From NCBI GenBank assembly GCA_949752735.1, contig OX457040.1, positions 1,454,554 to 1,518,553 on the forward strand: DNA of 64,000 nucleotides, read 5' to 3'. Both the position numbers and the translations under genes were made by a program. The notes under the pieces were generated by a model. The model saw only the letters and a program-made list of their open reading frames with translations, was not told where the DNA came from and ran no database searches. Source of the stretch: Lumbricus terrestris. Taxonomy: Eukaryota; Annelida; Clitellata; Crassiclitellata; Lumbricidae. Of the stretch, positions 8,377 to 63,656 are shown piece by piece (position 1 is the stretch's first letter; each line of letters starts with the position of its first letter).

Positions 8377-9099
8377 TACCTGGAAATTCGTTACAAGTCC
8401 AGAGCTGTGCGAGTTCTTGGAGTCCTGATCTACGCTCTGCGATTTGTAAGTTTTGCTAATTCATTCCAACATTCAACATAGTCTATAATTTAACTGAACC
8501 TATCACGCCGATATATTCAGCCCGATCCAGTCGTATAGTGTGCAGCGAAATCCACGTTAACAATATTCAAATATAAGATGCTTCAGGATCTTTAGAGGTC
8601 ATTGCAAGGCCCTCTGCACTAACTAAGATATATAATTATGTCTATTTTACATTGGGCCGAATTCTGTAAGTAAAAACGAATATCTTTAGCCCAGGTCTCA
8701 ATGAAATTGTGGGAGTTTTCAGACATAATACAATAATCATTGTGGCAAGAATAGGATCCTATGCGTTATCATTATCATCTCGTGATATACCATGACCGAA
8801 TCTCGAAAACTCTTACCAGAAATATCGGTATTAATTATAATAATTATAGTATCTCCTAGGAGTACGTGAACATTTGCCTGCATAATACATGTAATAATTA
8901 TAATCATTATAATATTATATGCTACATATATTCACGTATGAGAGAAGTCAAGTGTTTCGGCTGTAAAGTTGGTGAAAAAGGGTCTGGAATTATTTGATGC
9001 TGAGTACAATAATTCGATCTGTCAACTCTTGAAAGTCAATCGCATTTTAACTAACGAATCAGCAGTCATCTGCAGCTTGACTGACTACCATGATAATTT

Positions 9100-9155
<56 letters not shown>

Positions 9156-10516
9156 TCCTTTTTGATTCCATGACCATTTACCATGCAGAATTTAATTTGT
9201 CTTCTTGAACTAATATTTTATGACTACGGTTCCACTTGTTGAAACGCGCGCCCTCAGCCGCTGCTTTTGATATTACGAAAACGAAATGGAAGTCATTGAA
9301 ATGGTATCCTAATTATATGACATTTGTTGCGTAGTCTTCCTTACTTTTTAACTATCTTGTCTGTCCATCGAATGTCTATGTATCTTTCTCTTGCTCTTTC
9401 TGTCTCCAGGTTTGCCTTTAGGTCACGTGTCAGTGTCTTCTCTTTTTCCTTCTGTTCTGTTTTTAACTATCTTGACTGCCCATCGAATGAATGCGCGTGA
9501 AAGCAGGATATCTGTTTCTAGCAATAAATGTGAATTTATTATTCTTACAGACTATTACAATCGGACTTGTTATGTTTGCACCTGCTACTGCCTTCACTGA
9601 AGGTATGTTTTCTCATTGTATGCATAATCCGATGAAGCGCTATAGCATTGCTAGGTAAGAATATTTACTGAACATAATATTATGAATGCAGATTCACGAA
9701 TTTTTGCTTTACCAGCCTACTTTCTGTATTTTTATAATTCTTGTTGTGTGAATATCAGAATTCTGATCCCGATCTGAATTTTTTCAAGCATTAAATGACT
9801 AAATAATCGTCCTATGGTCTACTCAAACACATGTTTGAATGTGTTTTGTTATGCATGAACGTGTATGTATGTTTGTGTGTGTTTTTATGCATGAACGTGT
9901 ATTTTGTATGTGTTTTGTTATGCATGAACGTGTAGGGCTATGTATGTTCGCGTGTTTTTGTTATGGTCGATCGATGACGGCGGCGCCAGAAGATTGTTGT
10001 GATGTCTGCTCACTAAAGTTGACTAAACCTGCGAATACACTGAATGCTTTCCGCATATTATCTTTACATTATATGCTTGAAGTCTTGCAGTGTATTGGCT
10101 TCCTATCACTGGACACGTCGTTGACTGCAGATTCTTTCTTGTCTCTAAATCACAGCTGGGCAATGTCCCTGGCCTATGTACCTACAAAACTATATGCGGG
10201 AGCCGGTATCTTCATTTCGTTGCGTTCTCTGATCACCTTGTATGTATGTATGTATGTATGTATGTATGTATGTATGTATGTATGTATGTATGTATGTATG
10301 TATGTATGTATGTATGTATGTATGTATGTATGTATGTATGTATGTATGTATGTATGTATGTATGTATGTATGTATGTATGTATGTATGTATGTATGTATG
10401 TATGTATGTATGTATGTATGTATGTATGTATGTATGTATGTATGTATGTATGTATGTATGTATGTATGTATGTATGTATGTATGTATGTATGTATGTATG
10501 TATGTATGTATATATG

Positions 10517-10550
<34 letters not shown>

Positions 10551-10612
10551 TGTATGTATGTATGTATGTATGTATGCATGTATGTATGTATGTATGTATG
10601 TATGTATGTATG

Positions 10613-10643
<31 letters not shown>

Positions 10644-13600
10644 CTATGTATGTATGTATGTATGTATGTAACTATGTATGTATGTATGTAACTATGTATG
10701 TATGTATGTATGTATGTATGTATGTATGTATGTATGTATGTATGTATGTATGTATGTATGTATGTATGTATGTATGTATGTATGTATGTATGTATGTATG
10801 TATGTATGTATGTATGTATGTATGTATGTATGTATGTATGTATGTATGTATGTATGTATGTATGTATGTATGTATGTATGTATGTATGTATGTATGTATG
10901 TATGTATGTATGTATGTATGTATGTATGTATGTATGTATGTATGTATGTATGTATGTATGTATGTATGTATGTATGTATGTATGTATGTATGTACATGTA
11001 TGTATGTATGTATGAATGTATGTAAGCTTGATGATTTTTACGTTGTTCTGTTGACAGTGACTGGTCTGCCTGTGTGGGCTGCCATAGTGGCGACTGGTGT
11101 CGTCTGTGTCTTCTATACAACCATTGTGAGTATTTGTCTTCTACATGTATCACCATTGTGAGTATTGCTCAATGCCAAACAATTCTAAGTCTCAGTCCTT
11201 AGATTGGTTCATGTGTAGAAAAACTGAATAATGACAATCTCCCATGTTACTATTACTATTACAGTGAAACCGACAAATGATAATACAAGTTACCCACTGA
11301 TTGTTTATTGTCTTCAGGGTGGCATGAAGGCTGTTATTTGGGCGGATGTATTCCAAACTGCCGTTATGATTACTGGACTATTAGCACCGATAATTCAGGT
11401 GAGTCATTGGTTTGATATTCCGCCAGGTTCACAAATCTGATAATAATTATCAGCTACTTTCCCGGAGAGCCATGGAGTAAGCGATTTCTATTGTCCTTCT
11501 GGCTTACAGGCAGGGCCGTTTTTAAGGTTCTTCGAGTGTCGGTGCAAATTGTTACAGCAGGGGCAAAGTGCCGTTCGGCAGTCTTACAAGATTAATAATC
11601 ATTTGCAAAAAATCCGCTGTTCAATGGGCTAGCCTACGTGGTTTGTCAGTTGTGGCCATTGAACAGCGCAGTGGTGGGTCAGTAAGCAAACACGCAACGT
11701 TAGTTAACTTAGTTAAATTAATGTTTTCTTACATTTACTGATTTTACAAAAGGTTTAAGTAACACCGAGACTCGCAAAAGACATTTGGCCAATGGTAACA
11801 AAACTCTCGGTTCAGGGGCATTCGGTGCACCGCACCGAATGGACCTATGTTATGTTAAACACGGCCCTGCTTACAGGAACACAACGGCGCATCATAATAA
11901 TTATGGGTTAATCACTGTGCAGGTTAATTGATTCGATCTGACGTCGTCACTGTCGTTATTGCTATTACCAATAATATTCAAAGTAGGTTGCAGACACCAC
12001 AAAACTAATATTTGTATTGAAAATTAATTATATTAATGGTAATAAGTAATGTTATTATAACGATGACAATTAATTATCGTAGGTCAATTAAAATATTCTT
12101 GTTGTTCTGGTAGTAGGCCTAAAGCTAGTTGACCAGTAGGCTAATAAAGACAATTACACAGTGTGAGAATTGCCGAGATTTTTTGAGGGGTTCCAACACC
12201 CTATTGTTTCTTAGCGTCTCGTAATAAGGTCTTCTCTTCACACCCCAAATTCACGTGGATCATAGTCTGACTCATCTCTGTTATTTTCTTTAATTCTCAT
12301 ACTGCCTTGACAACGTTACCACTGACAATAAAATACTAAAGCTGATAATAAAAATAGTCGCAGATAAGTAGGACGCAATTGTAAGCCGCTTTAGAGGCCT
12401 TCACTCTGAAATACAACGCGATCTTCGTGAGAGTGATCATAGAAACCTTGCTTTGAATATTTGGGGTAGGCTATAGTTATTGCATGTCACGTGGTGACAT
12501 GAATAATTTGTGTTGTCTAAAGTCGGCCTACACCTGAGAATAGCTCACCTAATAACTAGACTCACGAAGCCGGTTTATTTAACAGTGTCTTGTCATGCTT
12601 ACATTTCTTTTATAAACGTGGCATTGCCAGGGCATTTTCCGGGAAGGGCCTATACATGTAGAATCGTAGATGATACCATAATGTTATGTTTGTGGTGCAA
12701 CGAGTTTAAGAGTAATATGTTTGAACATTTCAATGTGATAGTGTTACATTGCAATACTAGGATACGTTGCGATAGGTTACACTTCGAAAATCTCATACAC
12801 GTAATCAAATACAGTACATTACAATCCAATTTACAATTCAATGCAATTCATTACGATGCAATTCAATACAAAGAGCAACCAACATCAGCATGATAGTTGG
12901 ATTTCAAAACAACACTCAGCCTGTTAAAATAGCGAGTTGTTGGTCCCTTAATATCCTGATGAACGTGACCTTACCGTTCTTCTTCTTTTTTCCATTTCCA
13001 CAGGGATGTATTATGACCGGAGGAATTGGAAACGCATGGAAGCGCACGGAAGACAGTGGAAGAATTGAATTCTTTGAGTAAGAATTATTCATCATGAAAA
13101 GCTCAGATCCATTAGCTACTGTCTGCTATAATAATAGAGTATGATGTCGTTACAACGTACATGTAGTTTGTCTTGCTTATATGCAAGGCTTCGTAAAAGA
13201 AATACCTTACGGATGTAAAGTAATGCAACGCATTCAAAAATTTCTGTCTAAGAACAGTGGAGCACCCATTGGAACACTCAATAGAACACCCAATGGAACA
13301 CCCAGTGGAACACCCAGTAGAACACCCAGCAAAACATCCAGTGGAACACCCAGTAGAACACCCAGTGGAACACCCAGTAGAACACCCAGCAAAACATCCA
13401 GTGGAACACCCAGTAGAACACCCAGTGGAACACCCAGTGGAAAGGTTGGCGAATCCCTTTAGCCTACCATGGGCGAGGGGCCGATGGCGGGTAGTATTCG
13501 AAAAACCATAAATTTCACTATTTCCACATCGTGACAGTTTCACAGCTCTATTCACCTGAAACCTGCAGCTGCAAAAAGTGCAACAGCGAGATCCCGTTCC

Positions 13601-16600
13601 ACACCGTCCCTGCAGGGGCTGGGGTGTGGGTGCGGGACTAAACTAAAATTTTCTGGGTCACATCTATTCACCTCAAAGCTTCCAGTTTCGCAGAGAGCCA
13701 CCATGACCACCCTAGCCACCTCTTACTCTGGGGAGGGGCGGGAGGGAAAAAACCCGAAGTTTCCCGAGCGACGTCGGGTACGGTGCCCCATATTAGGGCC
13801 ATATATAATAAAAGATAATAGGACAGTTGGCAGCTATTTTAAGGTTGCCTAATCGCACTGTATCGAACTTGCACTAGCAAATGAATTCAGCTTCTCCTGC
13901 GATTTACTCAAAGGCATTCTTTCAGAGTTGAAAAGAATTGTCTGATACATCAAACCACTTCCTCCTCAGCTGCACCTGATCTAGTTGTCTTTGGTCCAAT
14001 TATCATCAATTTTTACCGTTTGACCTTTCAATCAGACGATCAGCATAACCATGTCTCACCTGAACCACCAGTCTCATTCCGTCTAAGAATATTATTATCA
14101 ACCGTCCGAAATGGTCTCATTAAAAGCATTTTTTAAAATTATGGAAAATAAGCTGATTTGGGTGTTGAAGATATTATCCAGAGATTAGTCTTCCTACGTC
14201 GAATGTGTCGTCTAAAAACCGGATACAGGAAAATCTGCAAGAACGGAAGAAGCGTTTATGTTTTTATGCGTCCGGATATAATTTCTGGTAATTAATTATT
14301 GGACGTGAAAGTGACGTACGTGCTTTGTTATCCGCTCACCGTTGAAAGATTGTAGTGGCAGCTTCTGTCATATCAACGCAATTGACTTTTGTCGTCAGAG
14401 TGTGATTTATGTCATGAACCAATCGCAGGCTCCACTGCTATTATAACCTCAGATTAAATCATAGCCTATAAATCATGCGAATAATTGTGATATACATCAT
14501 ATGAATTGTGAGCATTTTTACGGAGCCGATGAAAACGTCCATAATCTGTAATTGCTATTTTGATAGCCTCAATCCGGATCCGACCGTTCGACACACCACC
14601 TGGACTCTTCTCATCGGAAACTTCTTCAATTGGCTTCCCAATTATTCAGTGGACCAGCAAATGATTCAGAGATACGCCTCGACAAAGAGCATGAAGCAAG
14701 CCACGATGTAAGTAAAATATTATGCCAACAGCAGATGCAAGTAATCGGTATGATCAGAGAAGACGCAAGTAATTAATGTGTCAAACTGAGATGCAAGTAA
14801 TCCATATGCCAAGAGGTGATGCAATTAATTGATATGTAAAGAGGAAATGCAAGTAATCGATTTGCAAATCGGTTACTTTTCCTGTATCTCCTCTTTACGT
14901 ATCAATTAATTGCAAGTAATAGATATGCCAAAGAGGAGATGCTCAGATGCAAGCCATTGATATGATGTGAGCAATCCAAATCTCACATATTCATATTATC
15001 TTCCTTGATTGTTTTAATTGTTAGGTTAAGCTTTTGATATAGTTTGCAACATTGTGCTCAAAGTTAATTACTATTTTATGATCTCAATGTTGCGTGCTTC
15101 AACGACTAAAGAAATATTCAAAACAAAACCATATTAAATAATAAGTCGGCCAATCAGTCTCAGTCATTTACTTACATAGGCTACATGTAACTTGGCTTTT
15201 GAGTCACGTACATGTATCTTGATTGGGTGGAGTGTTGTGCTTGTATACTGGGAAGAATACGGACTTCAATCTTTTCTCTGGAGGTTAGTGGGTACGGACC
15301 TTGTGAAAGTAGCCTACACTGAGCACATTACTCAGCGTCAACAATTCCCTTTAAGTAAGACAATATATAAATATTTTGTTATTGTACTGAATGCCACATG
15401 AAACCAGCCAGTCAACAATCCACTAATAACTGATTTAATAGGCAGTCAACCAAAGACTTATATAGCCAGTGCAAATACGTAGCCTACTCACTCATTCAAT
15501 CAGGCTGTCAGTGTTTCAGTCAGTCATTGAGCAAATTATAGCCAGTAATTCTGCTCACATTAAATCGGCAATTTCCCATTTCGTTCGCAGAGCTCTTTTA
15601 CTCAACGTACCTGCGATACTTCTGATGATAACGTTGAGCTCATTACTCGGGGTTGTCATGTACGGATACTATGCTCCAATGAAGTGCGATCCATTCAAGA
15701 GCGGACGTGTTAAAGACCCAAATCAGGTAACTGTTATCAATCAATCAATCAATCAATCAGTCACTTAATCAGTATCAATAGCCAGTAAACAGATGCAATT
15801 ACATTAAAAGTATACAACTGATAGCATTCAATAATTATTTAATGACAGCTGTTGTGTACTTTATTATTCGAATATAATGTAGGCCTAATGACTTGCTAAG
15901 TATAGGCCTGCTTATTATTGTTAAACTAAAAGTTTAACGAAATCTTATAACTTCAACAGCCGTTGACGTCTTTACAGGTAATAATAGATTAAATTGTATT
16001 TCTGTTTTTTTCATCGATTTTCCCTTCATTCGACGATTCATATTTTACTTGGTACTTAGTCCTTCCCGTGCAGGTCTGCACATCGGGCAACGCATCTCCT
16101 CCACTCCTCCCGGCCCATCGCCAGCTCCCTGGCTTCGTCCCAAGCCAAGACATCTCCAAACGCCTCAAATCGTCTCTAACCGTGGCCAGCCAGTTCTTTC
16201 GTTGTCCTTCTGTCTTCCTTCTTTCAGTGACAATGATCAATAAAAACTCTCAAAATATAATCAAGTAATCACATTTAAGGCAATGACGTCAATTAATAGC
16301 TCAAATAATGCAATAGCTGTAAACAAACCACTCTCAACGCACGTAGCCTACTAGATAGCCTATGGATTGGATAGCTGAAATAATAGATGTTAATTAGTCA
16401 CTCTTAGATCCTCTAATAGCTTTTGCTTTCTTGACAGTTGGCACCGAGATTCGTAATGGACATCTTCTACTTCGCACCTGGGATACCTGGTCTCTATCTT
16501 GCCAGTCTCTTCGCAGGTTCTCTCAGGTGAGCTGCATTCTTTTATGCTCAGGTTGGCAGGTTCAAGGTTCTCTCAGGTAGGCTGCTGTCAGATTCCAAGT

Positions 16601-19600
16601 ATGTGGAATCCGATTAAGAGGGACATGAATATCGTGTAGGGAGTTTAGATCAGAATCTGTTATCAGGACTAGCAGGATAAGTTATGCGATCGCTGAGTTC
16701 GTGGTGAATTTTTAGATTCATCTACCGACGGAACCAGGGACTAATAGCAAAAAATAGAACATCCCACGCGCTCCATTACGTTTTACCTGTAGCCTATTTA
16801 TAATAAACTGGAGCAGTAATGGGACCAATTCGAACGTATTAATATTATACTTGGCTAAAGAATCGTTCGGCGGAGATAGTAGCCACTGTCCGTTAATGCT
16901 TTGCGGTGAAGCTTAGTTTACTGTGTTGAAGAGTAAGGGGAATTGGTGGAGACAATAATTACTGAAGAAGGGAGGCGTATTGGTAAGTGGACAATTTGAC
17001 GAAGGCCACTGGTTTACTAGACAGCATTGATGTATGAAATACATTGCTGGGAAGAATGCATGTAGATTGGTCAAGTGTTTGTGAGATGAAAATGCTGAAG
17101 GTAGAGCCTGTCTTGTCGCTTCAAGAATTTATTCGTGTTTTCTTTAGTTCCGTCTCGTCGATGTTGAACGCCTTGGCGACTGTTATCTGGGAAGACATCT
17201 TCAAAATGTTTCAACCAGCGAGAGAAGCTTCAGACAAGACTGCCACGATCGCAACTAAACTCCTAAGTAAGCGCCTTGAAATTAGTCAGATATTTAGACG
17301 CCTTTTGTAATTGGTGCAAATAAACGGTTGTCGGTCATTCATTCATTCATTCAGAAAACTTACATAGCGCTCCTTCAAGAAGCCTACTCAGATCCGCTCC
17401 CAGCCCAGCCACGGCTGAAAAGATAGGTTTTGAACAACTGGTTGACAACAGGCAAATTATTTCGAGGTAGTAAGCATACTGCAAGCGGGTGTCCATTCCA
17501 TGTGGACGGCCCAACAACCGAGAAGGGTCGACGCTGTCTGGTAGCAGAGCGGGTTCGAGGGACCAGCAGCTCCCCATTGGTCGAAGAGCGTAAAGCTCGA
17601 CGGGAGGCTATGTCAGAGGCAGGGCGACAGATATCAGATAAGTCGGTTTTTGATTAGTCATTTTTGTTATAGATCTATTAGGCCTACATGTACTTGTTTA
17701 AAAGTGATATTTAATGAGTTATCCGGCATCTAGACATAGAAAATGACTAAATTTGTTATTGGATACCGATATTAGTGAAAAGCAGCACACTATAATATTG
17801 TTATGTGCTCATTGTTTACAGCTTAATCGTTGAAAGTAACTCATGGCACTGCGCGTAATAGAATAGATCCATTGTTTTTTCTATTGTTTCTTTTTTTCAT
17901 TCATTCTCTATGCATGACATTGTGTCGACCAACTGTGCAATGAATTGAAATTCGATACGTTGCTTTTCTTTGAAGGTGTCGTCTTTGCTGGTAGTGGAAT
18001 GGGAATGGCTTACGTCTTCAGCAAAGTCGGTGGAACAATTCTTCAGGCAGGTTGCATTAACCGCTGAGTTTGTTCGTCCATGAGAATGCATTTGTCGCCA
18101 GAGCCAGCTTTCAGTTGCTGCTGATAAATGTCGAAAAAATAGGAACATAAGAATAGTCTTTATTTGACCAATTGTTGCTATTTGAAATTTGCCACTTTTG
18201 GAATCTTTCTGTCCGCCTGTTTGTATGTCTGTGTGTATGTCTGTGTGTATGTATGTGTGTATGTCTGTCTGCATGTCTGTCTGTGTGTATGTCTGTGTGT
18301 ATGTCTGTATGTATGTCTGTCTGTATGTCTGTCTGTATGTCTGTTCTTAATTTCCTTCTTTGCCTTTTTTTGACAATTGTGTTTTGTCCCTTCTAAAACA
18401 TATCTTAAGGCGCTTATGCACTAAATGAATCAGATCCATGCAAAAGGTTGATCGAGACAGTTTGATAGGTTCCCATCTTTGATTATTCATTGTCATGTCT
18501 CGATTCGATAGAAATTACGCGTGACTAGAAACCACGATGCAGTAGTTTCAAATTAAAACGTAATAAAGTTGTCTATATTATTTTACATTAAATTTTTATA
18601 ATTTACCGTGTTGTTTTTTCTTTCAGATGTCGCTGGCCTTCAATGGAGCGGCAGTTGCTCCCATATTTGGAATCTTCATGCTGGGATTGTTCTTTCCATA
18701 TGCAAACTGGATCGTAAGAATCTTTCTATTGTTCTGCAACAGTACTTCTGGAGCACAGCTTTTGGGATATTAATAGCAATATTGTCATACAGCTCTGAGA
18801 TAATTATTATTAGTAATATTGACGCGCCGCGTTGGGGATATTCATAGCAATATTGTCGTACAACTTTGGGGATATTAATAGCAATATTTTCGTTGGACGT
18901 TTCGTTTCCTTTCCTTTCTGAAATACTGAAAAAGTTCTTAGTCTGTTAATTATATCCAATTGTATTCTAATTTACATTACTGGTCGGTTGGAATGGCAGA
19001 AGGGCTAATTTCACCCGGGCAGAGCTACAGAAATTAGTTTTGAAACACGTGAAAGGTCATGAAAACATTCATAATAATATTATAGTAATAGTTAATATTT
19101 TTATTGATAATTTACCATTGCATAATGATACAGATTTAACACTAATCCTAAGAAAACCTAACATTAAAACTAAGAAAATGGGAAGTCAAAAAAAGATACA
19201 AAGTTCGGTTAATTAATTTGGGGAATGCTAAGACCTGTGTTATTGTAGGGAGCTCTTGTCGGTGGAGTCATTGGCTTCGCCTTACCGATGTGGATCAGCA
19301 TAGGAGCCGCTGTGGTAAAGCCGCCCATCTACAAACCGATGTACTATGACGTCGAATGTTGCGAAGTCATTCCAAGCAACTTCACTTCATTATATTTCTC
19401 GACGGATTTCAACACTACGACTACCACCACCACTGATCCAGAAGTGTACGATTTACTTGCTCACCCGTGTCTGCTAGAAGGTTTTTTTTAGTTTTGCGAT
19501 GCATTTAGGATATCATCTTCGACATCCAACATTATTTCATTCTTGTTAATTATTCATGTTCTTATCCTGAAAATGCTGAGCTCTCGACAGGGCCTAGCTA

Positions 19601-22704: not shown

Positions 22705-22705
<1 letters not shown>

Positions 22706-23524: not shown

Positions 23525-23735
23525 ATGTAAATGTAATCGCAAATTTATATAGCGGCTGTGTTATGGCTTCGACCCTGAGGGTGATATCCTTCACCACCGC
23601 TACTCCACGTTTATATTGCGACCGAGCCACCCGCAGTAAAGATCCGAGAAATTAATCTCTGACCGACCGGGAATCGAACCCGGGCCGCCGGCGCGGCGAG
23701 CGGGCTACCAACCCACTCGGCCACTCGAGGAAACT
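23525..23735 (-). mobile_element. tRNA-derived SINE, minus strand
   Basis: Read on the minus strand, an A-box TGGCCGAGTGGG (complement of 23712-23723) and a B-box GGGTTCGATTCC (near 23669-23680) form a tRNA-like head. An unrelated body follows and ends CCGCTATATAAATTTGCGATTACATTTAC. The head alone could be mistaken for a tRNA gene. The attached body and repeat tail make it a SINE. Confidence 0.75.
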
Positions 23736-28149: not shown

Positions 28150-28186
<37 letters not shown>

Positions 28187-37100: not shown

Positions 37101-38214
37101 ACAAATAATTATTTATATGACGCTGTAGAACATCCACGCCGTCACAAGGGCGTGCATCTACCGTGTCTAGTTGAAGCAGTGTGTGTAGCCGAACAATGTC
37201 TAGCTGAGGCTCGTGCCTCTGACGCATATTTTTTTTTAACTAGGTAGCCTATTTATCTTAATTATTATCCTTGCTATTATCGCAGGTAACACTGAGCCAA
37301 ACGAAGTCGATCCGAAGCTTTTGATTCCTTACGTCGATAAGTTCTGGTGTTGTTTCCCGGAGTCATGTCGATCGAAATTCAGATGTGGAATCGACTTCAG
37401 CAAGGTTGGACTAGACTATAATTATTGTTAACCCTTTGATGGTCAGCATGTAGGCCTACTAAAATGCATTGAAACATATGTAGCTGGCATTTAATGGGTT
37501 TTATATTGCGATGGTAAGATTAATATATAATCCATGTTGAAATAATGATGTCATAATTTCATCTGACGCTTAGGGATTTACACTGGACCGACGGCTCAAG
37601 AATACCTTTTTAAACCAAAAGTCATCCAGTTTGGTCTTCCGACACAAAATCAACAGGCAGGATGGGTGAAGAGTGTCCCCATGTTATGGTGTTTATATCC
37701 ATGCCTGAGTCGGAAATAGCAGATTTGAGACGTTTCTGGAAGGTGTTTGACAGTTTGGCAGATAATAAACCTAGTATACCAGCATCGACGCAACAGTTTA
37801 ATCTGTTCTCAGTACTTCTACTGAGAAATTCAAGGTCGATGTTGTGTTTTAAGCTATTAACAATAAATCTAATTATGTACTCCGGTCTTTAATCCCTCTT
37901 CTTGTTAGCAACGGATGTAACCTGCGAGCTAAACCACACAACTTCTCGTTACCTTTAAAAGATCTATTAATTTCATCTCATAATTTATAATCATCTAATC
38001 TCACCTGTATGAGCACATCTACTAACAAATTATATCCCTGCGTTGTGAGATGAACAATATTTTCTATTAAGTTGCGTCTGTGTCAGCTTCGCACTTCTAA
38101 TAAACGAATGTTGATTAATTGATTGATTAATTGATTGATTGGTAGGTTAATTGATTGATTGATTAATTGATTGATTGATTGACTGATTGATTGACTGATT
38201 GATTGATTGGTTGG

Positions 38215-38245
<31 letters not shown>

Positions 38246-38329
38246 GTTAATTGATTGATTGATTGGTTGGTTGGTTGATTGATTGATTAATTGATTGATT
38301 GATTGACTGATTGATTGGTTCGTTGATTA

Positions 38330-38368
<39 letters not shown>

Positions 38369-40323: not shown

Positions 40324-40341
40324 TTATGTGAGTGTTATACC

Positions 40342-50800: not shown

Positions 50801-51500
50801 CTAGTTTTAACTTACAGAAGTGCTTCTACAACTGCACATTTTGCGCACAGCTGCACGTTAAAAAAGCCCTGGGCTCCATTCTGTCGGTTACCATGGTCCA
50901 TGCTTAATTTGATATAGCAACAATTCCCTGAAAAACGAGATTTTACTTTCCTTGATTTAATCGATTTACACTCTGGCTCAGTGAAATGTTTCCAAAAGAA
51001 GCGGAAGTAGCTTTACTGCGACAGATTATTTGAAAGTAACACTAATGTGATCTCATAATAGTCTAAAGATTAACTTTTAGCAAAACTGCTTCCTGTTTTG
51101 GGGTCACATTTTGTCCTCTGTGTAGCTTTCCTGAGGGGAAAATTTTGCAAATGAAATGACTTTCAACAGTTGTCTTCATTTCTTCGTCGTCTGATCGTTT
51201 CTTCTGCAGGCAGACGATGCAAACACCATATCGGAAATCGTTAATCAAAACAAATCCGATGGAGCATCATTCAACAGAGGAACGACCATCGCATGTGTCT
51301 TTCCCGAACAAATTAACGACGAAGGAAATAACGGAAGACAGAATCCTAATGATGGATATTCGGAAAGCGTTCCATCCACATTTCAACCACCTGCTTCAGC
51401 GGAGAATTCTATTCGTTCCTCAGCCAGTCACAGTGGCTCTGGATGCAACAACGACGCTCACGAATGCTTAGATGATGTTGAAGATGTTTCTCAACTCTGA
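41806..51500 (+). CDS. slc5a8-like: SLC5-family sodium/monocarboxylate symporter-like, copy 3, complete
   Basis: Exons: 41806-42177, 42611-42679, 43451-43502, 43922-43989, 44501-44581, 44828-44901, 45145-45285, 46480-46615, 46913-47001, 47341-47459, 47870-47940, 48874-48960, 49630-49829, 50190-50290, 50569-50687, 51210-51500. They total 2070 bases, 689 codons. Exon 1 closely resembles that of copy 2 at the DNA level. Motifs are TGWDYLVFSIILALSAAIGI, GGMKAVIWADAFQ, QQMIQRYASTKNRNQAT, AGSLSTVSSMLNALA and FWCCFPESC. The exon 13 loop carries N-S-T, and the tail ends SQL. Three consecutive introns, after exons 9, 10 and 11, start with GC rather than GT (47002, 47460, 47941). Intron 7 hosts a Polinton integrase fragment, and intron 11 contains a tandem duplication carrying a decoy exon 12 acceptor. 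The start codon is in AAGATGG context. The same family-level function as copy 2 is expected; substrate unknown. Confidence 0.93.
43083..43175 (-). mobile_element. CR1-like LINE 3' tail fragment
   Basis: (TTCA)n, then TATAGCGCATCTTCAAGAG and GTTGCTCCCGACTCC, in intron 2 of copy 3. Confidence 0.6.
43596..43858. repeat. (TATG)n array
   Basis: The core at 43627-43760 is pure and its edges are degenerate. It lies in intron 3 of copy 3, the same intron that holds the longer array in copy 1 (10240-11025), although copies 2 and 4 lack one there. Confidence 0.97.
44940..45055 (+). mobile_element. SINE fragment, plus strand
   Basis: GGCGTGAAACTCAGATGCAG...AGAGCGCTTCTGAGTA...CTTGAAGGGGCG matches the body and tail of the SINE at 51790-52010 in the opposite orientation. 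It is truncated at its 5' end and lies in intron 6 of copy 3. Confidence 0.6.
46223..46252 (+). repeat. 30-base copy of the exon 8 acceptor region
   Basis: Identical base for base to 46463-46492, which spans the pyrimidine tract, the TTCGCAG acceptor and the first 13 bases of exon 8 in copy 3. The copy offers a perfect decoy acceptor 240 bases upstream of the true one. Confidence 0.95.
46252..46284. repeat. perfect palindrome, 16-base arms
   Basis: Arms at 46252-46267 (CTGGCAAGCATCGTGG) and 46269-46284 are exact complements around one A. It adjoins the captured exon 8 sequence. Confidence 0.95.
46700..46800 (+). mobile_element. CR1-like LINE 3' tail fragment
   Basis: GGGTTGGGAGCACTTCTGTG...GCGCTATATACA...(AATG)n in plus orientation, in intron 8 of copy 3. 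Confidence 0.6.
48150..48425 (+). mobile_element. CR1-like LINE 3' end with last codons of the polymerase
   Basis: The plus-strand frame reads RLPHKLRSELLGLSLPLFRK then RLKTILFVSGS, the usual C-terminal end of CR1-type polymerases. It is followed by GGTCGGGAGCGCC, GGCGCTATATAAATG and an (ATTACA)n tail. It lies in intron 11 of copy 3 and links the recurring tail sequence to a LINE. Confidence 0.75.
48441..48878 (+). repeat. tandem duplication carrying the exon 12 acceptor
   Basis: The block 48441-48673 recurs as 48674-48878 with a deletion of about 28 bases in the second copy. Both end in a GATTTCAGATGAC-type acceptor, but only the second is followed by exon 12 (48874). The block includes a LINE 3' tail (GACTGGGAGCGCACCTGAGT...GCGCTATATCA). 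Confidence 0.85.
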
Positions 51501-52010: not shown

Positions 52011-52059
52011 GACGACTGCAGAGAAAAGACAGATTTCGGTTTAAAGACTGAGTCACTCA

Positions 52060-52675: not shown

Positions 52676-52679
52676 TAAT

Positions 52680-54414: not shown

Positions 54415-57400
54415 ATGGAGTCGACCTGTGTGGGAGTGCCACCTGTTCCAACGGGAAGCACATTCACCGGATGGGACTACCTCGTCTTCGGCATCGTCCT
54501 CGCCATTTCCGCTTCCATTGGAATCTACTACGCCTTCACAGGTGGAAAACAAAAGACAACTCAGGAATACCTGTTGGCTGACAAGAGCATGTCGGCTTTT
54601 CCGGTGGCAGTGTCGCTCTTCGCCTCACTTTTCTCGGCAGTCACACTCCTCGGATTTCCTGCTGAGATGTATACGCAGGGAACGATGTTCTGGATGGGTT
54701 GGTTGGGTGTAGCGCTTGGTCCGATTCTCGGAGCTACCGTCTTTGGACCGTTTTTCCATCGACTGAAAATTCTCAGCGCATTCGAGGTATTTTATTGGAT
54801 TGAACGTATGCTTTAGTACCATCTTTAGCGACGAAGGAAATGGAAAAAATGTATACATAATAAGTATCTATAGAATAGAACCAGACGTATTCTAATTCGG
54901 AAAAGTTGAGAAAATTTAAGAGCAGTACGAAAATATAGAAGAGTGCATTTGCACTTGACGGTCCAACTGAATGGGACAAACTTCCGGACTTTGTTTGCAA
55001 ATCGTCTTCTTCGTCGCTTTTCAAGATAACCTTAAGACTTAAGTTATTCGTTTAAGAATTGTTATCAGTGGACTTTGTTTTTCGTGCAAAATTCTCTTTC
55101 GTCTATGCGCGTTATAAATGACAGCTTAATCATGACAAGAAAAATAATAGGCCTACATGTAATAAGAACAATAATTTTAAAAGGTGTTTTAAAGCCACTC
55201 TTTCTGTTGGTAAAGTGTTTAAGATAAAAGTCGCGAAGTAATTGCATAAGGAACTTCATTTCATTGTGAAGATTCGCCTACATGAACTCCAATCTAGCTC
55301 CTCGTGGTAAAGGTACCGTAGGTTGCTGCATGATTGTAGAGAATGTCAACAATTTCTTTGCGAACCCATATCAAAGACTGTCCCACGTCAGGTTTCTACG
55401 ATGAAGTTCAGATACCTTGCTTGTATCTTTTTATGCACGTACAATAATTGAACACGTAGCCTATGTATGTTAAATTTGTATGCACGTGTAATTCTTGTAG
55501 TACCTAGAACTGCGATTCAAGTCCAAAGCTGTGCGAATTTTCGGCTGTCTGATGACCATCGTTAAATATGTAAGTTTCGTGATTTCTACGCAAAACGATT
55601 CGTTTTGACATTCATTTTAATTTGATCTGATCTAATTAATAATATTAATTATGTCGACAGAGAAATTAGTTTGCATCTTTGTTCCATTCAACCGAGCCAG
55701 CCGGATTCTTTGAATTTCATTCTACATGTATTTAAGACCCCGTCCAACCTAATTCAACTCATAAATGTTATTTTTTTAGTTTTAAAACTCAACTGCCTAT
55801 GCCTACTTATCTCTTTTCACAGATCTGTAAAGTTTGCACACTAGTTAACTAATAAAGCCTTTGCTCTGTATAAAAACGTTTCTCTTATATGTGTATTAAA
55901 ACAAAACTTTCGGTTATATTCCGATTACTTACTTATTCACTTTTCAATTCGATGTTTATTCTAAGGTGACTTTTTGCTAGCATGGCAGGGCATAGGTCCT
56001 TTTGGAACTGTCTTTGAGTCAAAAATTGTAAGCCCTGTTTGTAACCTACTATAATTTATAACTGTTAAACTTTTTTTCTTTTGGTTTCAATAAAAAAAAT
56101 GTGGTATGGCCATCTTCAATATTATTTTAAGAGATTTGCTTAGAAACTATAGGTGTAGGCCCCTAATTCTTTTGCGAGGTCGTTTTAATATACACGTCTG
56201 CTTGCATTGGAATCCTGTTCAGCAAGGAATTATTTTCACTTTGTTGCTCAAAGTTGTTGAAACGTTTCATTCTGGCATCCACGAAACTTTCAAATGGTGC
56301 TTATTGAAGTTGTTATATTTGTGTATTCAAGACATTAGAATGGAATTCTAAGTGCTTAAGATTTGTTGAATACTAACCGCACCTGGATTCCTTAGTGTAG
56401 ATCTAATAAGCAATCACAAGCATATAAATGAGAATTTATTATTCTTGCAGAATATCACAATCGGAATTGTCATGTTTGCACCCTCGGCTGCTTTCACTGA
56501 AGGTATGTTTGTTTAGTCTGGAGAGGTACCAGCATTGTCTAAGAAAAGTCTTATGAAGACAGTATTTTAAAGACAAGAGATTAGATAACGTTGCTTTGAC
56601 CATCTGAATCGTTTGTATGCTCCATGCACTGCCTGTCTTACTTTGCATCCTCTGTCACTCTCGAAACTTATTCAACATAACAGTTTTCACATCTGAAATC
56701 TTTTCCTCAAGCAACGCGATCGACTCTTCATAATTAATCTAATGAATGTAGGATATACTTGCGTCGTGGCTTTCTTTCGATTCAACAACACTGTCATTCA
56801 TTCATTCATTTAGAGCATTTATATAGCTCCCGTTCAAGAAACTACTCAGAGGCGCTTCCAGCGCACCCACGAACAAAGAAAAAAGACTTGAGAGACTTGT
56901 AGAACCCAGCCTGATGGACCACAAGTAGAGAGCGAAGAGTAACCGGGAGGTCATTCCAGACAGTAGGCCCCACGACCGAGAAAGCACGGCGCTTCTTAAT
57001 AGCCAAGCGAGCTGTGTAATAGCAACAATTATTTATTAGTGTCGCCCTCCTTCTTCAAGCAGGCTTGGGACTGGCACTTTAGAGCGCAAACAGAGGTGGG
57101 TTAACCTAACAACTTGGAAGGGTGAGTCGAAGAGAAATCCCAGTTTTACTGTATACCAAGAGATTGTCTAATTATATACTTGTATATATATTATATTATA
57201 TATACATAAAAATATATGTAGATCTAATCGTTTTACTATGATAGATCCAAACACATCTATCTTATTCTCATCTATCAATAGGCCTACTGGCATGAAACAA
57301 TCGTCTTTAATGCGTGCATAAAGACATGCACTCTGTTTTTAGAAATTTCTGCGACGATTTAAAAAGAATAAAATCTCAAGGATAATTTCATACTGTTCTT

Positions 57401-60400
57401 GCTTATTTTTTGGTAAGCGGCGACAGTTTTTATTACTGCAATCTTCCTTTGTTCACAGTGACTGGATTTCCTGTCTGGGCGACAATCGTAACGATTGGAA
57501 TCGTCTGCGCCTTTTACACGACCCTGGTAAGTCATATTAATATGTAATTCTCGCATTCTGATTCATTCGGTTCAAATAATAACTAGCACTCGTGAATACG
57601 CTGGTGCCCCGAGCTTGGCTTTCGAGAAGCGCTTTAGATATTTGGAGAGATTAGCCTACGAATGCGATTACGATTAACCATAGGCGTATGAGACATTTCG
57701 GCAGTGGGGGGAGGGGCAAAGACCTCTACTTTTGCCCGAAAAGTATACTTTACATTTTTTGGCGGACCGCAAGTCGCCGACATTTTTTCCATCCATCGAC
57801 CAAATTTTCTGATGATCTTTTTTTAGTCATTTCGATTTCCCACCGAAAAAATAACTGATGACCTTTTTAAAGTCATTTCGTACAAATCTTCAGTAGATAT
57901 TACTGTTTTACCCCTGTTTGCCCGAAAAATAACAATATTAATATTATATTATTATGAAGTTTTTGTGTGTAAAATATACCGATATCTGTGTGACGTTTAG
58001 GGTGGTATGAAGGCTGTGATTTGGGCGGATGTATTTCAGACTGCAATCATGCTTGCCGGAATGGTGGCAGCAATCATTCAAGTGAGTAATCATTAATTTT
58101 GCAGGTTTGAACATTTCCAAAGTTTACCATTTCACCGATTCATTAAACAATCAAATCTATAGAGACTTCTGTTACGTTTCCGACAATGAACAGGTATAAT
58201 TATCTGGTTGACACACAATCAGACTATGACTAGGCCCTACTTGGATGGAGAAATACTTCTACGGCAACGACGAATCGCAGGCCATTCTTGAAGATATGAA
58301 TGACAATTCACTATTACTAGTGGCCTCCCTGTGTCAATGTAGTAAATTAGAATTACTTAAGTGATCGTTGAAATTGTAAATCTAAATCAAATCAACGTAT
58401 CAATTGGTAAAAAATCTACAACGGACCCAGGGCTTTTTTAACGTGCAGTTGTACACAAAATGTGCAGTTCTAAAATGGATTTGTGCACTTGTAGAAGCAC
58501 TCTGTGCCGTTAAAACTAGCAAAAAGTCATTGTCCTCCAATTGGAAGTGATTTACCATGGATGATTGGAAAGGAAAGAAGGGGTTGTGCAGTTCTAAAAA
58601 TTCCTTTAAAACAGCCCTACTACACATGTAGTAGGTCTATTTCTTGAGAATTTTTCTAGGCGTACAACTCTAACTCCCAATAGACCGCGTTGTAAATGGA
58701 TCAACCAATTAAAATCTAAAATAATTAAAATAAAATTCAAAATCGTAGACCCAAATTAAAGTCAAGTAGACCTAAATGATAAATCAGTTGAATTCATTTG
58801 ATTACACTGAGGCAAAAGAGTTTGCACTTAAGCTTGGTATAATGATCGTCTTGCTTTCTATTTCATCCGTCTAGGGCATCATTGAGACTGGAGGAATTCA
58901 GAAGATCTGGAAGCTTGCAAACGATGGCGGACGAATCGAGTTCTTCGAGTAAGAAACCAACAAACTTTACAGGACAGTCCGTTCCATGAGATCGGTATAG
59001 TAATATGCATACAGTCAAGACAGCCGAATGCAATGCTCTTTGCACAGTTATGCTAACACTTGACCCACGTGCGTCTCATCTGGTGAGTTAAGTTTAATTA
59101 ATATTACCGCATAACTTGTACATGTAGCCTAAAGCGCAGTGCATTTGCAGGCACTGAATTAAATAAAAATAATAATATTATTAGAAGGCTATTTTAACGA
59201 GTAACCATTCCTGCAATAGAGAATCAATTAATTAATTTAGAAATTGAAATTTACTAAGCCCATATCTAAATGACGAAGTTTATTCTGATTATATTCTGAA
59301 AGCTTCAACCCGGATCCGACAGTTCGACACACATTCTGGGCGCTGGTTTTCGGAAACTTCCTCATGTCTGGACCTTTCTACATGGTGGAGCAGCAAATGG
59401 TCCAGAGATACGCATCCACCAGAAGCATGAAGCAAGCGACGATGTAAGTATGGAATAAATCTTATATTTCAACGAATTCATTTCTCTGCATTGAAAATAA
59501 TCGTCTTATTTTCAATCGCACATCAGCATTTTTATATTTATCGAGATATTAATTTTAAGTAGATTGAAATTGTGACAATTCTGCTGGTATTTTGACTGCT
59601 AGAAGATAACGTTTGAAAAGTAATTTAAATTTTGAAGGCATTTCTTCTGCAATCTGCTCATGATCGTTGCGTTCACAGAGCTTTGTTGCTGAATGTCCCT
59701 GGAGTATTCATCATATTCAAGCTCGGCGCAATTCTCGGAGTCGTTATATTCGGATACTATGCCAACATGAAGTGCGATCCTCTGAAGAGTGGGCGCGTTG
59801 CTAATCCAAATCAGGTGACAACATAGTCGTAAAAAACTTCTTTTGGTTTTTATTCTACTCAGAAAAATACTGTTTCTTTTGATTTATTTTTCGTCTCTTT
59901 TTTGTTTATTTTATTTTTATGTGACCATCATGTCTGCAATTATTTTTTATTTTCATTTTCGTCCGATGCCTCTTAAGCTGTGTCCGTACCATTCTTTCGT
60001 GGATTCCTCTAGCCTTATTCAGGTCACTATTTGATCATTTCAGTTAATATTTATTAGTAAAGTTATGTCACTCATGTTACTTGCTAATTAAGATTAGGCC
60101 TATATTGAGTAAACAAAGTTTTAAATTTTATTTTTGTGTAGTAGGGTCACCCGGGGGGGGGGGTTATGGACACCCTGGGTGTTATGGCCACTGGTCTTCT
60201 ACAGCTAAATATGATAATATAATAAACTCTAATCTGTTTACAGCTCTATGCACATTCGTCCTTCACCTTTCAACTATAAATTGATGTCGCGATGGTAAAA
60301 TTCAGATATATACGCGTTAGTTTTTAAATTATCCAATTTCTCTATTATAGCTAACCATGATTATGAAAATTATATAAAAAGGTGCCTTTGGGATCTAAAA

Positions 60401-62408
60401 TTTTGAAGTTGGCAGTTTTATAATATTATAAAGGTTATTTGACAATGTATACGTGTCTTTAATTTCACGTTATGTGCTTCCTAAACGTGAGAAAGTAACG
60501 ATCTGATATACCATTGTTATTGGGGTGATATGGACACTGAGACACCGGGGTGATATGGACATTGTCCATATCACCCCGGCCGAATGTCCATACCTCCACA
60601 GCTGTGTTTTTTGTACGTAAAGAATGTTTTAAACAGACTAACTGATATTGGTATCGTTTAATTGCTTTTTTTATCAGAATTATTGCAAACAATGCCACGA
60701 GAGTTCCAAAATAGAAACATTAGGGTTCAGTGCATGGTCTTTAGACAATGCCAAATTAGCAGGTGCAGCAGTGAAGCGGTGAATTCATTGTATGTGCAAC
60801 TCAATGTAGACCTCCAGGAAGAGATCTAACATTTCGCCAATGTATGGGCAGCCTAATGTAGGGTATACCGGTGATGGCACTGGAACAATCCTCTGTCTCA
60901 TGCGGCATACAAGAGGAGTCACTGGGACCATCATCTATGTTAGTGTCGCTCAACTTACTGGAGGAGGCGCTGGATAAATAGTATGTGCCACTCAATGTAG
61001 GCCTACAGGAAGAGACATCTGGTATACCCCCATGGAATGTTTGAGTAGCTTAATGTACCGGCGATGGCATTGCCTATGTCTACGCTACTCAAGATTCCCC
61101 ATTGCCAGCATCCATGTCCGTGTCTTCAGATATGGACACAAAGTGCTGCCTTTTGTTCCGGTGACCAAAATTAATGTTCTCATAAAGTCAATGACCGTTT
61201 AATGTTTCTTAATAACTTTCATGACATTCAGGTGCTTTGGGGTGATATGGACATTAGTGGGGTGATATGGCCACCCCATGTCCATATCCCCCCAATCACG
61301 GGGTGATATGGACACTAAACAAAAATTCATTTTATGAATTTTTCACAAAAACCTGTTTATATTTTCCAGCATTTAATAACGTTCCAAGTACCTCTCCTAG
61401 AGTACTTTGAAATAGAATATTCACATTGTAATCTTTATTCAAACCTAAGCATATAATAGCCAAAAAGCTTAAGGGGTCCATAACCCGCCGGTCGACCCTA
61501 GACCCTATAAGATTTAAGAAAGTCCAATATTGGTTTTTGTTTTCCGTTTTTGCTCTTTTTCTCCATTTAAAATAAATAAAACAACGTCTTATCTTGTTTT
61601 TTTTCTGTTTTCGTCGTCTTAATCTTCTTTGGGTGACAGGGATCATTCAAACAGACTCCAGTCATATAAACAACTGCCTATCATTCAATACCGAATTTAG
61701 TGATGGCTCTAACTCGATTTAAGACTTACAACTGAAACAGGGTAATCGCTTTAGAAATGTACAACGCCTGTAACGCTGGCCTAATAGTCGCATACCAATT
61801 ATTATTATTCTCGGATCTTCAGACATCAGCTGTTTTCTTCTGTTAAAGTTGGTGCCGAGATTTGTCATGGACATCTTTGGCTTCGCCCCAGGAGTTGCCG
61901 GACTCTATATTGCCAGCCTCTTCGCAGGTGCTCTCAGGTAAGCTTCGCCAAGCTGCTACCAGGCAAGTGTTTTTCAGGTACATTCACAAATGCTGCTCTC
62001 AGATGCTATCATAAGTAAGCTTACATGGTTTTTAGTTCAGCGCAAGTGTAGGCTCGCATTCACGTTGCGACTTCTGAATGTTGTTCACGCACATTGGAAT
62101 TTTCCAGCTGCCTAAATTGAGGGTAAACGCGAAATGATGCAATGCACTGGCACAGCACAGCACCCTGGGATTCATCCATAAACCACAGATGGGTCTAAGA
62201 CTAGAAAAACGTATTCTGTTAGTGATTGGAATTACGAGTTCATTTGCGTTCGTGGCGTAATTGAATTTAGTCCGCATATTATAGCCTACAGGAGTCAACT
62301 TAGAATATTTCATTGCTGTCTTTTAACAAAGCCGTGTTTCATAGTTTTGGTGATTTGGGAGGAAATGATGGTGGCGAATAATAGGCTAATTGCAAGTCGA
62401 CATTTTTG

Positions 62409-62472
<64 letters not shown>

Positions 62473-63656
62473 GACGATTTATATAGCGCCGTAGCTCAGC
62501 CGAGGCCGAAGGAAAGGGCGCTGGAGAATGTTGATGAGTAGAAGATCTCTCTAATCGTTTCGCCTATCGAACTGTGTTTTTTTCTAGCACGGTCTCGTCA
62601 GTGCTGAATGCATTGTGCACCGTTGTCTGGGAAGATATCTTCAAAATGACGTTTCAGTCAGCGAGAGAAGCTACAGACAAGACTGCCACCATGGCAACAA
62701 AGATTCTCGGTGTGTCTGTTTTGATTAGTTAAGCAGTATCCACCATTCAACCTAGACATAATAATAATGATCATTATAGATAGCGCGGTTTAGTTCCTCA
62801 AAGCGCTGTCTGTAATAGTTCATTGTCTACCGCATTGTTTAATAATTGCTAGTGAAATAATAATTATTTAATTGTTGATGAGTTCATCGTACTGTATGGA
62901 TAAACAAGTCCTCTGCAGTTGACTGTGCGTGTTATTATTGACTCGCTAACACCATGCATGCTGACAATGTTATTAGCCTAAGGACTAGGGCCTACATGCA
63001 AGTTGGACTGTGTAACTCTAGGTAAATGTAGAAATCAATTTTACGTGTTATTATAACTAATGATATGCCTACATTTATTTCAGCATCATCACTACTTTAA
63101 AGAAAACCATAAAACGTCGTCAATGTAGGCATAGACCTTTTTTTCGATGAATGTTTTGTAAATTCTGTCTGGACAAAATAACACTGACATCGAAATCGTC
63201 TATAGACTATTATCCTATCAGCAGTTGTTGTACATAAAGATCATCTTAATATGCTTGTATGAGAAGACGGACTCTACAATGGATTGGATTATTCTTCTTG
63301 TTATTGTTCTTTGAAGGCGCTGTTTTTGCTGCGTGTGGAATCGGAATGGCTTTTGTCTTCAGCAATGCCGGTGGAACGGTTCTCCAGGTTAGTCACAGAT
63401 TTCATTTGTCTGTCGTTCCATCTTTCAGACGTCAGACAATAGACCAATAAATTGTTCATAATCTACTGCACTTATGTTTTTGTTATCATCGGCCATTGTT
63501 ATTCTTTCGTTGGTGTTTTTCTTGCGCGATTCACGAATCGTGAGGTTTGAACAAATTGTTTCATTTCAGATGATGATTGCGTTCAACGGAGCTTCCGTTG
63601 CTCCAATCTTTGGCATCTATTTGCTCGGAATCTTCTTTCCATGGACCAACTGGATC
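54415..63656 (+). CDS. slc5a8-like: SLC5-family sodium/monocarboxylate symporter-like, copy 4, exons 1-12 (continues beyond the window)
   Basis: Exons: 54415-54786, 55501-55569, 56451-56502, 57459-57526, 58001-58081, 58875-58948, 59303-59443, 59679-59814, 61849-61937, 62588-62709, 63317-63387, 63570-63656. They give 454 codons in frame. The start lies in AAGATGG context. Motifs are TGWDYLVFGIVLAISASIGI, GGMKAVIWADVFQ, EQQMVQRYASTRSMKQAT and AGALSTVSSVLNALC. This is the most diverged copy. Exon 8 reads FIIFKLGAILGVVIFGYYAN where the others have a TLSSLLGVVMYGYYAP-type segment. Exon 10 has one extra codon (KMTFQSAREA against KMFRPAREA). All its visible donors are GT, including intron 11, which is GC in copies 1-3. 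Exons 13-16 should lie beyond 64000. Different membrane-core residues may mean a different substrate; this is inference. Confidence 0.9.
56795..57010 (-). mobile_element. CR1-like LINE 3' end
   Basis: (ATTC)n, then TTTATATAGCTCCCGTTCAAG and GGCGCTTCCAGCGCACCC. The minus-strand frame further in suits the end of the polymerase. It lies in intron 3 of copy 4. Confidence 0.6.
57585..57676 (+). mobile_element. LINE/SINE tail fragment with GATTAC end
   Basis: CACTCGTGAATACGCTGGTG...GAAGCGCTTTAGA...GCGATTACGATTAAC matches the family at 21440 and 29545. It lies in intron 4 of copy 4. Confidence 0.6.
57677..57930. mobile_element. MITE relative with one visible end
   Basis: Begins CATAGGCGTATGAGACATTT and contains TTGCCCGAAAA motifs like the element at 40342-40633. 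The right end is not recognisable. It lies in intron 4 of copy 4. Confidence 0.6.
60145..61320. mobile_element. DNA-element-like block with GGGGTGATATGGAC repeats
   Basis: GGGGTGATATGGACA and its complement occur at least six times between 60160 and 61315. One perfect inverted repeat has 16-base arms around ATT (60545-60560 and 60564-60579). It fills most of intron 8 of copy 4. No transposase frame. The words resemble those of the 5585-7050 block but differ in sequence. Confidence 0.5.
62405..62535 (-). mobile_element. (AAT)n with a TATATAGCGCC tail
   Basis: About 21 AAT units are followed by GATTTATATAGCGCCGTAGC, the complement of a retroelement 3' end. It ends about 50 bases before exon 10 of copy 4. 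Confidence 0.6.

What the first reader, a model, noticed from the sequence alone, without database searches (positions are those of the whole stretch)
8377..63656. Four-copy head-to-tail array of SLC5 symporter genes
Four paralogs with the same 16-exon plan, same exon phases and near-identical exon lengths lie on one strand with uniform 2.9-3.1 kb spacers. Reading frames are intact, so all copies may be expressed. A local expansion of a sodium-coupled monocarboxylate-type carrier suggests selection for dosage or for divided substrates or tissues.
Basis: partly seen in the sequence, partly recalled or inferred. Interest (0 to 1): 0.75.

Follow-up and report, generated by a model that had tools for sequence, protein, structure and literature searches.

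The report
Large tandem family of sodium symporters
Four neighbouring genes for a sodium-driven membrane carrier turn out to be part of a family of roughly ninety loci in a probable annelid worm, whose sequenced members keep the sodium machinery but vary in the pocket that holds the cargo, so the worm may have evolved a toolkit for taking up different small molecules.

Summary
In detail: four same-strand SLC5 (PF00474) genes with one 16-exon plan, identical phases and spacers of 3085, 3116 and 2914 bp. Only copies 2 and 3 are complete inside the window; flanking DNA completes copy 1 (its exon 1 lies 4.9 kb to the left) and copy 4, without stops. Copies differ at dS 0.72-1.0, so they are not haplotypes. 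This array has 15 exon-1 and 15 exon-7 loci, and an exon-1 probe finds 92 loci in the genome: four arrays plus 13 others. The proteins group with annelid SMCT-like carriers. Nine sequenced genes are under purifying selection (pairwise dN/dS 0.10-0.29) and keep sodium-site residues, but substrate-pocket positions vary far more than homologues predict; the NIS Trp255 column is Val in copy 3 and Ser in copy 4. I favour substrate diversification over plain dosage. SMCT expansion by duplication is published for molluscs (16 genes in razor clam), so this is a much larger member of a known kind. Substrates and expression are untested, and the species is unidentified.

The parts
8377..22308 (+). Copy 1 (gene D of the array), exons 2-16: 8377-8445, 9551-9602, 11058-11125, 11318-11398, 13004-13077, 14567-14707, 15591-15726, 16438-16526, 17148-17266, 17976-18046, 18627-18713, 19249-19445, 20096-20196, 20872-20990, 22018-22308. 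Exon 1 lies outside, at G000:C6:1449248-1449619.
   Evidence: exon 1; exon 13/14 junction fixed with the spliced relative P0001
1..8376 (+). Part of intron 1 of copy 1 (13.3 kb in all); carries a P-element-like transposon fragment on the minus strand.
25394..38689 (+). Copy 2 (gene E), 16 exons: 25394-25765, 26420-26488, 27144-27195, 28011-28078, 28648-28728, 29429-29502, 30325-30465, 31286-31421, 33548-33636, 34134-34252, 34756-34826, 35376-35462, 36093-36295, 36755-36855, 37286-37404, 38402-38689; 689 aa.
41806..51500 (+). Copy 3 (gene F), 16 exons: 41806-42177, 42611-42679, 43451-43502, 43922-43989, 44501-44581, 44828-44901, 45145-45285, 46480-46615, 46913-47001, 47341-47459, 47870-47940, 48874-48960, 49630-49829, 50190-50290, 50569-50687, 51210-51500; 689 aa.
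   Evidence: Pfam SSF PF00474 E 1.3e-46; SMCT1 7sl9 E 1.2e-135
54415..63656 (+). Copy 4 (gene G), exons 1-12: 54415-54786, 55501-55569, 56451-56502, 57459-57526, 58001-58081, 58875-58948, 59303-59443, 59679-59814, 61849-61937, 62588-62709, 63317-63387, 63570-63656. Exons 13-16 lie beyond the window, to C6:1522976.
14631..14633 (+). Copy 1 codon at the NIS Trp255 column: Trp
   Evidence: exon 7 model and alignment
30389..30391 (+). Copy 2 codon at the NIS Trp255 column: Trp
45209..45211 (+). Copy 3 codon at the NIS Trp255 column: Val
59367..59369 (+). Copy 4 codon at the NIS Trp255 column: Ser

Best explanation
The window is a stretch of a large, lineage-specific expansion of NIS-clade SLC5 (SMCT-like) sodium symporters, grown by tandem duplication, including inverted duplication. 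Shown: the genes, their common plan, intact frames, old divergence with purifying selection, retained sodium-site residues, and pocket positions that vary between copies while being conserved in homologues. Inferred: each protein uses the inward sodium gradient to carry a small solute, and the copies have diverged in what they bind or how tightly, giving the animal a set of carriers for different small anions or carboxylates, perhaps dissolved organic acids taken up across skin or gut.
For: SSF domain E 1.3e-46 and SMCT1 7sl9 E 1.2e-135, SMVT 4.3e-123, NIS 1.4e-111. 15 exon-1 and 15 exon-7 loci in this array; 92 exon-1 matches in the genome, 62 exon-7 matches, 60 of which pair with a distinct exon 1 upstream on the same strand within 60 kb. 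In the fetched 334 kb, 8 genes (B-I) have all 16 exons without stops and a ninth (A) is intact through exon 15. Pairwise dN/dS of the nine 0.10-0.29. Pocket test: 40 positions listed for human NIS in PMC7034854 (passage) are variable at 7 of 40 against 283 of 403 other sites in 13 homologues, but at 23 of 40 against 210 of 403 in 8 non-redundant array genes; 0 of 20,000 permutations as extreme; same result with 121 homologues. Trp255 column: Trp in 95 of 121 homologues and Met in 14; in the array Trp in A-E and J, Val in copy 3, Ser in copy 4 and H, Phe in I and K. Sodium-side columns Ser353, Gln263 and Tyr259 are constant in all array genes that have a letter there. A spliced contig from an unnamed relative (P0001, 82% to copy 1) has exons joined as modelled. 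The last three residues of genes B-I are S-x-L/V in 8 of 8, a PDZ-ligand pattern like the T-R-L of human SMCT1 (recalled), although exon 16 is only 36% identical in DNA between copies 1 and 3.
Against: Within the array the pocket is not more variable than the rest (23 of 40 against 210 of 403, Fisher p 0.62); the signal lies in the contrast with homologues. The pocket list comes from a homology model of NIS, and rat and human numbering were taken as equal. Restricted to sites invariant in the 13 homologues the test is only modest (18 of 33 against 38 of 120, p 0.024). Trp255 is not universal in the family. No substrate, no expression per copy, no positive-selection model was run. 32 of the 92 exon-1 loci had no exon-7 match, mostly in the C13 array where the exon-7 probe is at 33-42% identity.
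Confidence: 0.6

Rival explanations
1. Dosage: many copies of one carrier with the same job, kept for amount; pocket differences are neutral drift after duplication.
For: Intact frames and purifying selection in nine genes; pocket no more variable than other sites within the array.
Against: Overall dN/dS stays low while columns conserved in homologues change in the pocket; the changes are radical, e.g. Trp to Ser or Val, with Val91 to Trp in copy 4 and gene H.
Confidence: 0.17
2. Division by tissue or life stage: the copies carry the same or similar solutes but are expressed in different cells.
For: Unlinked upstream regions and introns that hardly align between copies; divergent C-terminal tails.
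Against: Does not by itself explain the pocket changes; no expression data were available.
Confidence: 0.15
3. Assembly inflation: some of the 92 loci are uncollapsed haplotypes or mis-joined copies.
For: Two C13 exon-1 loci, 1842004 and 1904094, are identical in protein over 107 residues; genes G and H are 97% identical and in inverted order.
Against: All other pairs of the nine sequenced genes have dS 0.5-1.0; G and H differ at dS 0.08 and at roughly 80-94% of DNA in collinear pieces, far too much for alleles of one locus to be likely. Most exon-1 loci are well below 95% identical to the probes.
Confidence: 0.05
4. Mostly dying copies: a burst of duplications now decaying to pseudogenes.
For: Some exon-1 loci are short or partial (C13:2350565, 10846181, 2187152).
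Against: 91 of 92 exon-1 matches have no stop inside; none of the nine sequenced genes has an internal stop; dN/dS 0.10-0.29.
Confidence: 0.03

Closest known systems
SMCT1 (SLC5A8), PDB 7sl9
   Same: Best solved relative by sequence (E 1.2e-135 over residues 15-577 of copy 3); SSF fold family; sodium-side residues; C-terminal PDZ-like end (human T-R-L recalled).
   Different: Not a one-to-one orthologue: in the tree SMCT1 and NIS fall outside the invertebrate proteins that hold the array (midpoint root); pocket columns differ between copies.
NIS (SLC5A5), PDB 7uuy, and SMVT (SLC5A6), PDB 26va
   Same: Same clade and fold (E 1.4e-111 and 4.3e-123); Trp255/Tyr259 are described as pocket residues of NIS (PMC7034854, passages).
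   Different: Column 72 is Thr in most array genes and Gln in NIS; the Trp255 column varies within the array.
Mollusc SMCT expansions, e.g. 16 SMCT genes in Sinonovacula constricta (PMC11939762, passages)
   Same: Same family, expansion attributed there to tandem and dispersed duplication.
   Different: About 92 exon-1 loci here; pocket diversification not described in the passages seen; the razor clam genes were not compared directly.
Single annelid relatives: Capitella P0005, Paralvinella P0044, Lamellibrachia P0048
   Same: Sister group of the array in the tree (99/94).
   Different: One protein each of this subfamily among the 120 listed of 602, so the array-I expansion looks later than the split from them; gene loss or incomplete annotation there is not excluded.

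Membership tests
SLC5 / sodium:solute symporter family (PF00474) | SSF profile match over the core | tested here: met
   Copy 3: 159.8 bits, cut-off 22.8, profile 1-406 of 406
SLC5, NIS clade (SLC5A5/A6/A8/A12) | Groups with or scores best against A5/A6/A8 rather than SGLT or choline carriers | tested here: met
   375-457 bits for SMCT1, SMVT and NIS against 54-111 for SGLT-type and bacterial symporters and 37 for the choline carrier
SLC5, sodium coupling | Conserved sodium-site residues (Ser353/Thr354 of NIS) | tested here: met
   Ser at 353 in 10 of 10 array genes with a letter there; Ser or Thr at 354. Coupling itself was not measured.
SMCT1 (SLC5A8) orthologue | One-to-one placement with vertebrate SLC5A8 | tested here: not met
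   Array lies among invertebrate proteins, apart from SMCT1 (one vertebrate SLC5A8 sequence only, unrooted data)
SMCT1 (SLC5A8) function | Sodium-coupled transport of lactate, butyrate and similar | not testable with these tools
   Needs uptake or current assays
Lineage-specific tandem gene family | Several related, intact genes in clusters, closer to each other than to most outside proteins | tested here: met
   15 + 17 + 42 + 5 exon-1 loci in four clusters; nine sequenced genes plus P0001 form one clade, 100/99

The most novel reading that the evidence does not exclude
The animal has a chemically diversified repertoire of about ninety SMCT-like sodium symporters, built like a receptor repertoire: one sodium engine, many re-cut pockets (a pocket tryptophan lost at one position and, in copy 4 and its inverted twin, one gained at another), serving uptake of a wide range of dissolved organic acids or inorganic anions such as halides across body surfaces.
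Probability: 0.3. Interest if true: 0.8.

Novelty: new member of a known kind. Interest (0 to 1): 0.52.

Why it matters
Carrier families of animals are usually small (five NIS-clade members are inferred for the teleost-human ancestor; PMC9309457, passages). A natural set of dozens of paralogues with a constant sodium site and varied pockets would let the substrate code of SLC5 pockets, which includes drug-relevant SMCT1, SMVT and NIS, be read by comparison, and would make the old question of direct uptake of dissolved organic matter by soft-bodied marine animals testable gene by gene.

Tried and rejected
Haplotype artefact rejected by dS. Copy 1 as a truncated pseudogene was considered because exon 1 is absent from the window and rejected when exon 1 was found 4.9 kb to the left. 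A mini-exon between exons 13 and 14 was considered because the phases did not fit, and dropped when the spliced relative P0001 showed that exon 13 ends two bases later. My first exon boundaries were wrong in several exons (frames broken) and were corrected. The host was not identified: a COX1 search returned 8 proteins at E <= 1e-120, only one named (Octopus vulgaris, 83%), which neither supports nor excludes an annelid; the annelid label rests on the SMCT trees alone. Gene A's exon 16 and gene K's exon 12 are spurious matches and were not used; gene J has exons 2-4 under a run of N and no exon 16 found; K runs off the fetched DNA. In the trees I used 48 of the 120 listed proteins and 5; the 13 homologues were my choice, and the repeat used 121 of 130, dropping 9 longer than 760 aa (that set includes P0001, which belongs to the array clade). 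The first version of the pocket count had P0001 among the outgroups (15 of 40 and 299 of 403). The permutation tests draw sites, not evolutionary events. Papers: passages only were seen of PMC11939762, PMC9309457, PMC7034854, PMC13299470, PMC5237233 and PMC11037918 (the last gave nothing of use). Literature searches for SLC5 or SMCT expansions in annelids or by tandem duplication showed no report of this array; the library holds open-licence papers only. A structure prediction was not run: the spliced proteins are not contiguous in the DNA, and the solved relatives already fix the fold. Interim notes give rounder counts for the C13 array (about 45 and 23); the recount (42 exon-1, 19 exon-7) is the one to use.
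Full report
What is in the window. Comparing the window with itself shows repeated coding blocks on the plus strand. Splicing them by conserved boundaries gives four genes with one plan. Copy 1 has exons 2-16 (8377-22308), copy 2 exons 1-16 (25394-38689), copy 3 exons 1-16 (41806-51500) and copy 4 exons 1-12 (54415-63656). Phases are the same throughout and frames are open. The spacers between stop and next start are 3085, 3116 and 2914 bp.

The junction of exons 13 and 14 did not fit at first. P0001, a spliced contig of 561 aa from an unnamed relative, 82% identical to copy 1, reads through this junction and showed that exon 13 ends two bases later. It also shows that an orthologue of this kind is transcribed and spliced as modelled in a relative.

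What the protein is. Copy 3 matches the sodium:solute symporter profile over its whole length (PF00474, E 1.3e-46). By sequence the nearest solved chains are SMCT1 (7sl9, E 1.2e-135), SMVT (4.3e-123) and NIS (1.4e-111), far ahead of SGLT-type carriers. In a tree of 55 proteins the four copies and P0001 form one clade (100/100), inside a group with Paralvinella, Capitella and Lamellibrachia (99/94). So the host is probably an annelid. A COX1 search did not identify it. The array is not the orthologue of a particular vertebrate member.

The array is larger than the window. The window is G000:C6:1454554-1518553 of a 1.06 Gb assembly. I fetched C6:1344554-1678553, 334 kb with the window, of which two stretches of 5 kb read N. 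It holds eleven genes, A to K. D, E, F and G are copies 1 to 4. D's exon 1 lies at 1449248-1449619, 4.9 kb left of the window; its first intron is 13.3 kb and carries a P-element-like fragment. B to I have 16 exons each without an internal stop; A is intact through exon 15 (its exon 16 match is spurious); J has exons 2-4 hidden by N and no exon 16 found; K runs off the end. H is on the minus strand, tail to tail with G, 97% identical in protein, dS 0.08, with collinear DNA pieces at about 80-94%. This is an inverted duplicate younger than the other splits, whose pairwise dS among the nine genes A-I is 0.5-1.0.

The genome. Exon 1 of copy 3 (124 aa) finds 92 loci at E <= 1e-3, 91 of them without a stop inside: 15 on C6 1.39-1.76 Mb (77-100% identical), 17 on C6 1.92-2.39 Mb, 42 on C13 1.45-3.08 Mb, 5 on C13 10.77-10.88 Mb and 13 elsewhere. 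With exon 1 of a C13 member as probe, 67 of 95 matches are at 60% identity or more: the three other clusters plus two on C9 and one on C8. Three exon-1 sequences from these clusters were read and are SMCT-like and open. Exon 7, as an independent probe, finds 62 loci: 15, 17, 19 and 4 in the four clusters and 7 elsewhere. 60 of the 62 pair with a distinct exon 1 upstream on the same strand within 60 kb; 32 of the 92 exon-1 loci have no exon-7 match, most of them on C13 where the probe is weak. The tool says its counts are lower bounds for large families; on the other side, two C13 loci are identical in protein over exon 1 and could be a recent duplicate or an assembly duplicate. The 13 others include ordinary, distant SLC5 genes.

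Selection and pocket. Pairwise dN/dS among genes A-I is 0.14-0.29, and 0.10 for G/H. Forty positions are listed as lining the ion pocket of a human NIS model in PMC7034854 (passage seen). In 13 lophotrochozoan homologues 7 of 40 of these vary, against 283 of 403 other sites. In 8 non-redundant array genes 23 of 40 vary, against 210 of 403. None of 20,000 random choices of 40 sites gave so large a contrast, and the result holds with 121 homologues. Within the array alone the pocket is not more variable than the rest (Fisher p 0.62), and among sites invariant in the 13 homologues the excess is modest (18 of 33 against 38 of 120, p 0.024). The clearest case is the column of NIS Trp255: Trp in 95 of 121 homologues and Met in 14 (the printed human SMVT chain has Met there); in the array Trp in A-E and J, Val in F (copy 3), Ser in G (copy 4) and H, Phe in I and K. 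G and H carry Trp at column 91, where D and E have Val. Ser353, Gln263 and Tyr259 are constant in the array. V293, another column that varies in the array, is named as an iodide-coordinating residue in PMC13299470 (passage).

How it probably works. Shown: a family of intact, old, selectively maintained genes with a conserved sodium side and a varied pocket. Inferred: sodium-driven uptake of small solutes, with the copies tuned to different solutes or affinities. The ends of B-I read S-x-L/V in 8 of 8 although the tails have diverged, which suggests that all are anchored by PDZ proteins at the same membrane domain; the PDZ reading is recalled knowledge. Uptake of dissolved organic acids across skin or gut is my guess for the physiology and rests on no call.

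Compared with what is known. The razor clam has 16 SMCT genes, and expansion in molluscs by tandem and dispersed duplication is published (PMC11939762, passages). Fused database models of two tandem units, such as P0002 (scorpion) and P0004 (brittle star), read, suggest that tandem SMCT genes recur in invertebrates. So the kind is known; the size and the pocket pattern are what stand out. Searches of the held papers found no report of such an array in annelids, which is weak evidence because the library is partial. In both protein searches only P0001 (75%) and P0006 (64%) among the 120 best listed are more than 60% identical to copy 3, and P0044 is at 60% over half its length, so this array clade looks lineage-specific.

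Noticed in passing
window 18047 and 34827 and 47941 (intron 11 of copies 1, 2, 3); 47002 and 47460 (introns 9 and 10 of copy 3); also intron 11 of gene C and intron 4 of gene I: GC instead of GT splice donors: 5 of 56 donors in the window models; intron 11 is GC-AG in four neighbouring genes C, D, E, F.
   Followed up: partly
window 31853-33295, minus strand: Open frame of 480 aa with a reverse transcriptase domain (PF00078, E 7.2e-23), inside intron 8 of copy 2.
   Followed up: no
window 1786-2849, minus strand: Frames matching TNP-like GTP-binding insertion (E 1.1e-41) and RNase H (E 7e-13) domains, a P-element-like transposon fragment inside intron 1 of copy 1.
   Followed up: no
window 23658-23732, minus strand: tRNA-Gly-like sequence between copies 1 and 2 found by ARAGORN but not by Rfam at gathering score; perhaps a tRNA-derived SINE.
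   Followed up: no
window about 10240-11020 and about 43600-43830: Long ATGT/GTAT microsatellites in the same intron (intron 3) of copies 1 and 3.
   Followed up: no
window 46224-46253 and 46464-46493: The acceptor and first bases of exon 8 of copy 3 are duplicated exactly about 240 bp upstream in intron 7, next to a short palindrome, a possible decoy acceptor left by an insertion.
   Followed up: no
G000:C6:1508293-1523227 and 1526587-1541840: Copy 4 and gene H form a tail-to-tail inverted duplication (palindrome-like) with a spacer of about 3.4 kb between the aligned arms.
   Followed up: partly
G000:C13:1842004 and G000:C13:1904094: Two exon-1 loci 62 kb apart that are identical in protein over 107 residues: very recent duplicate, conversion or assembly duplicate.
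   Followed up: no
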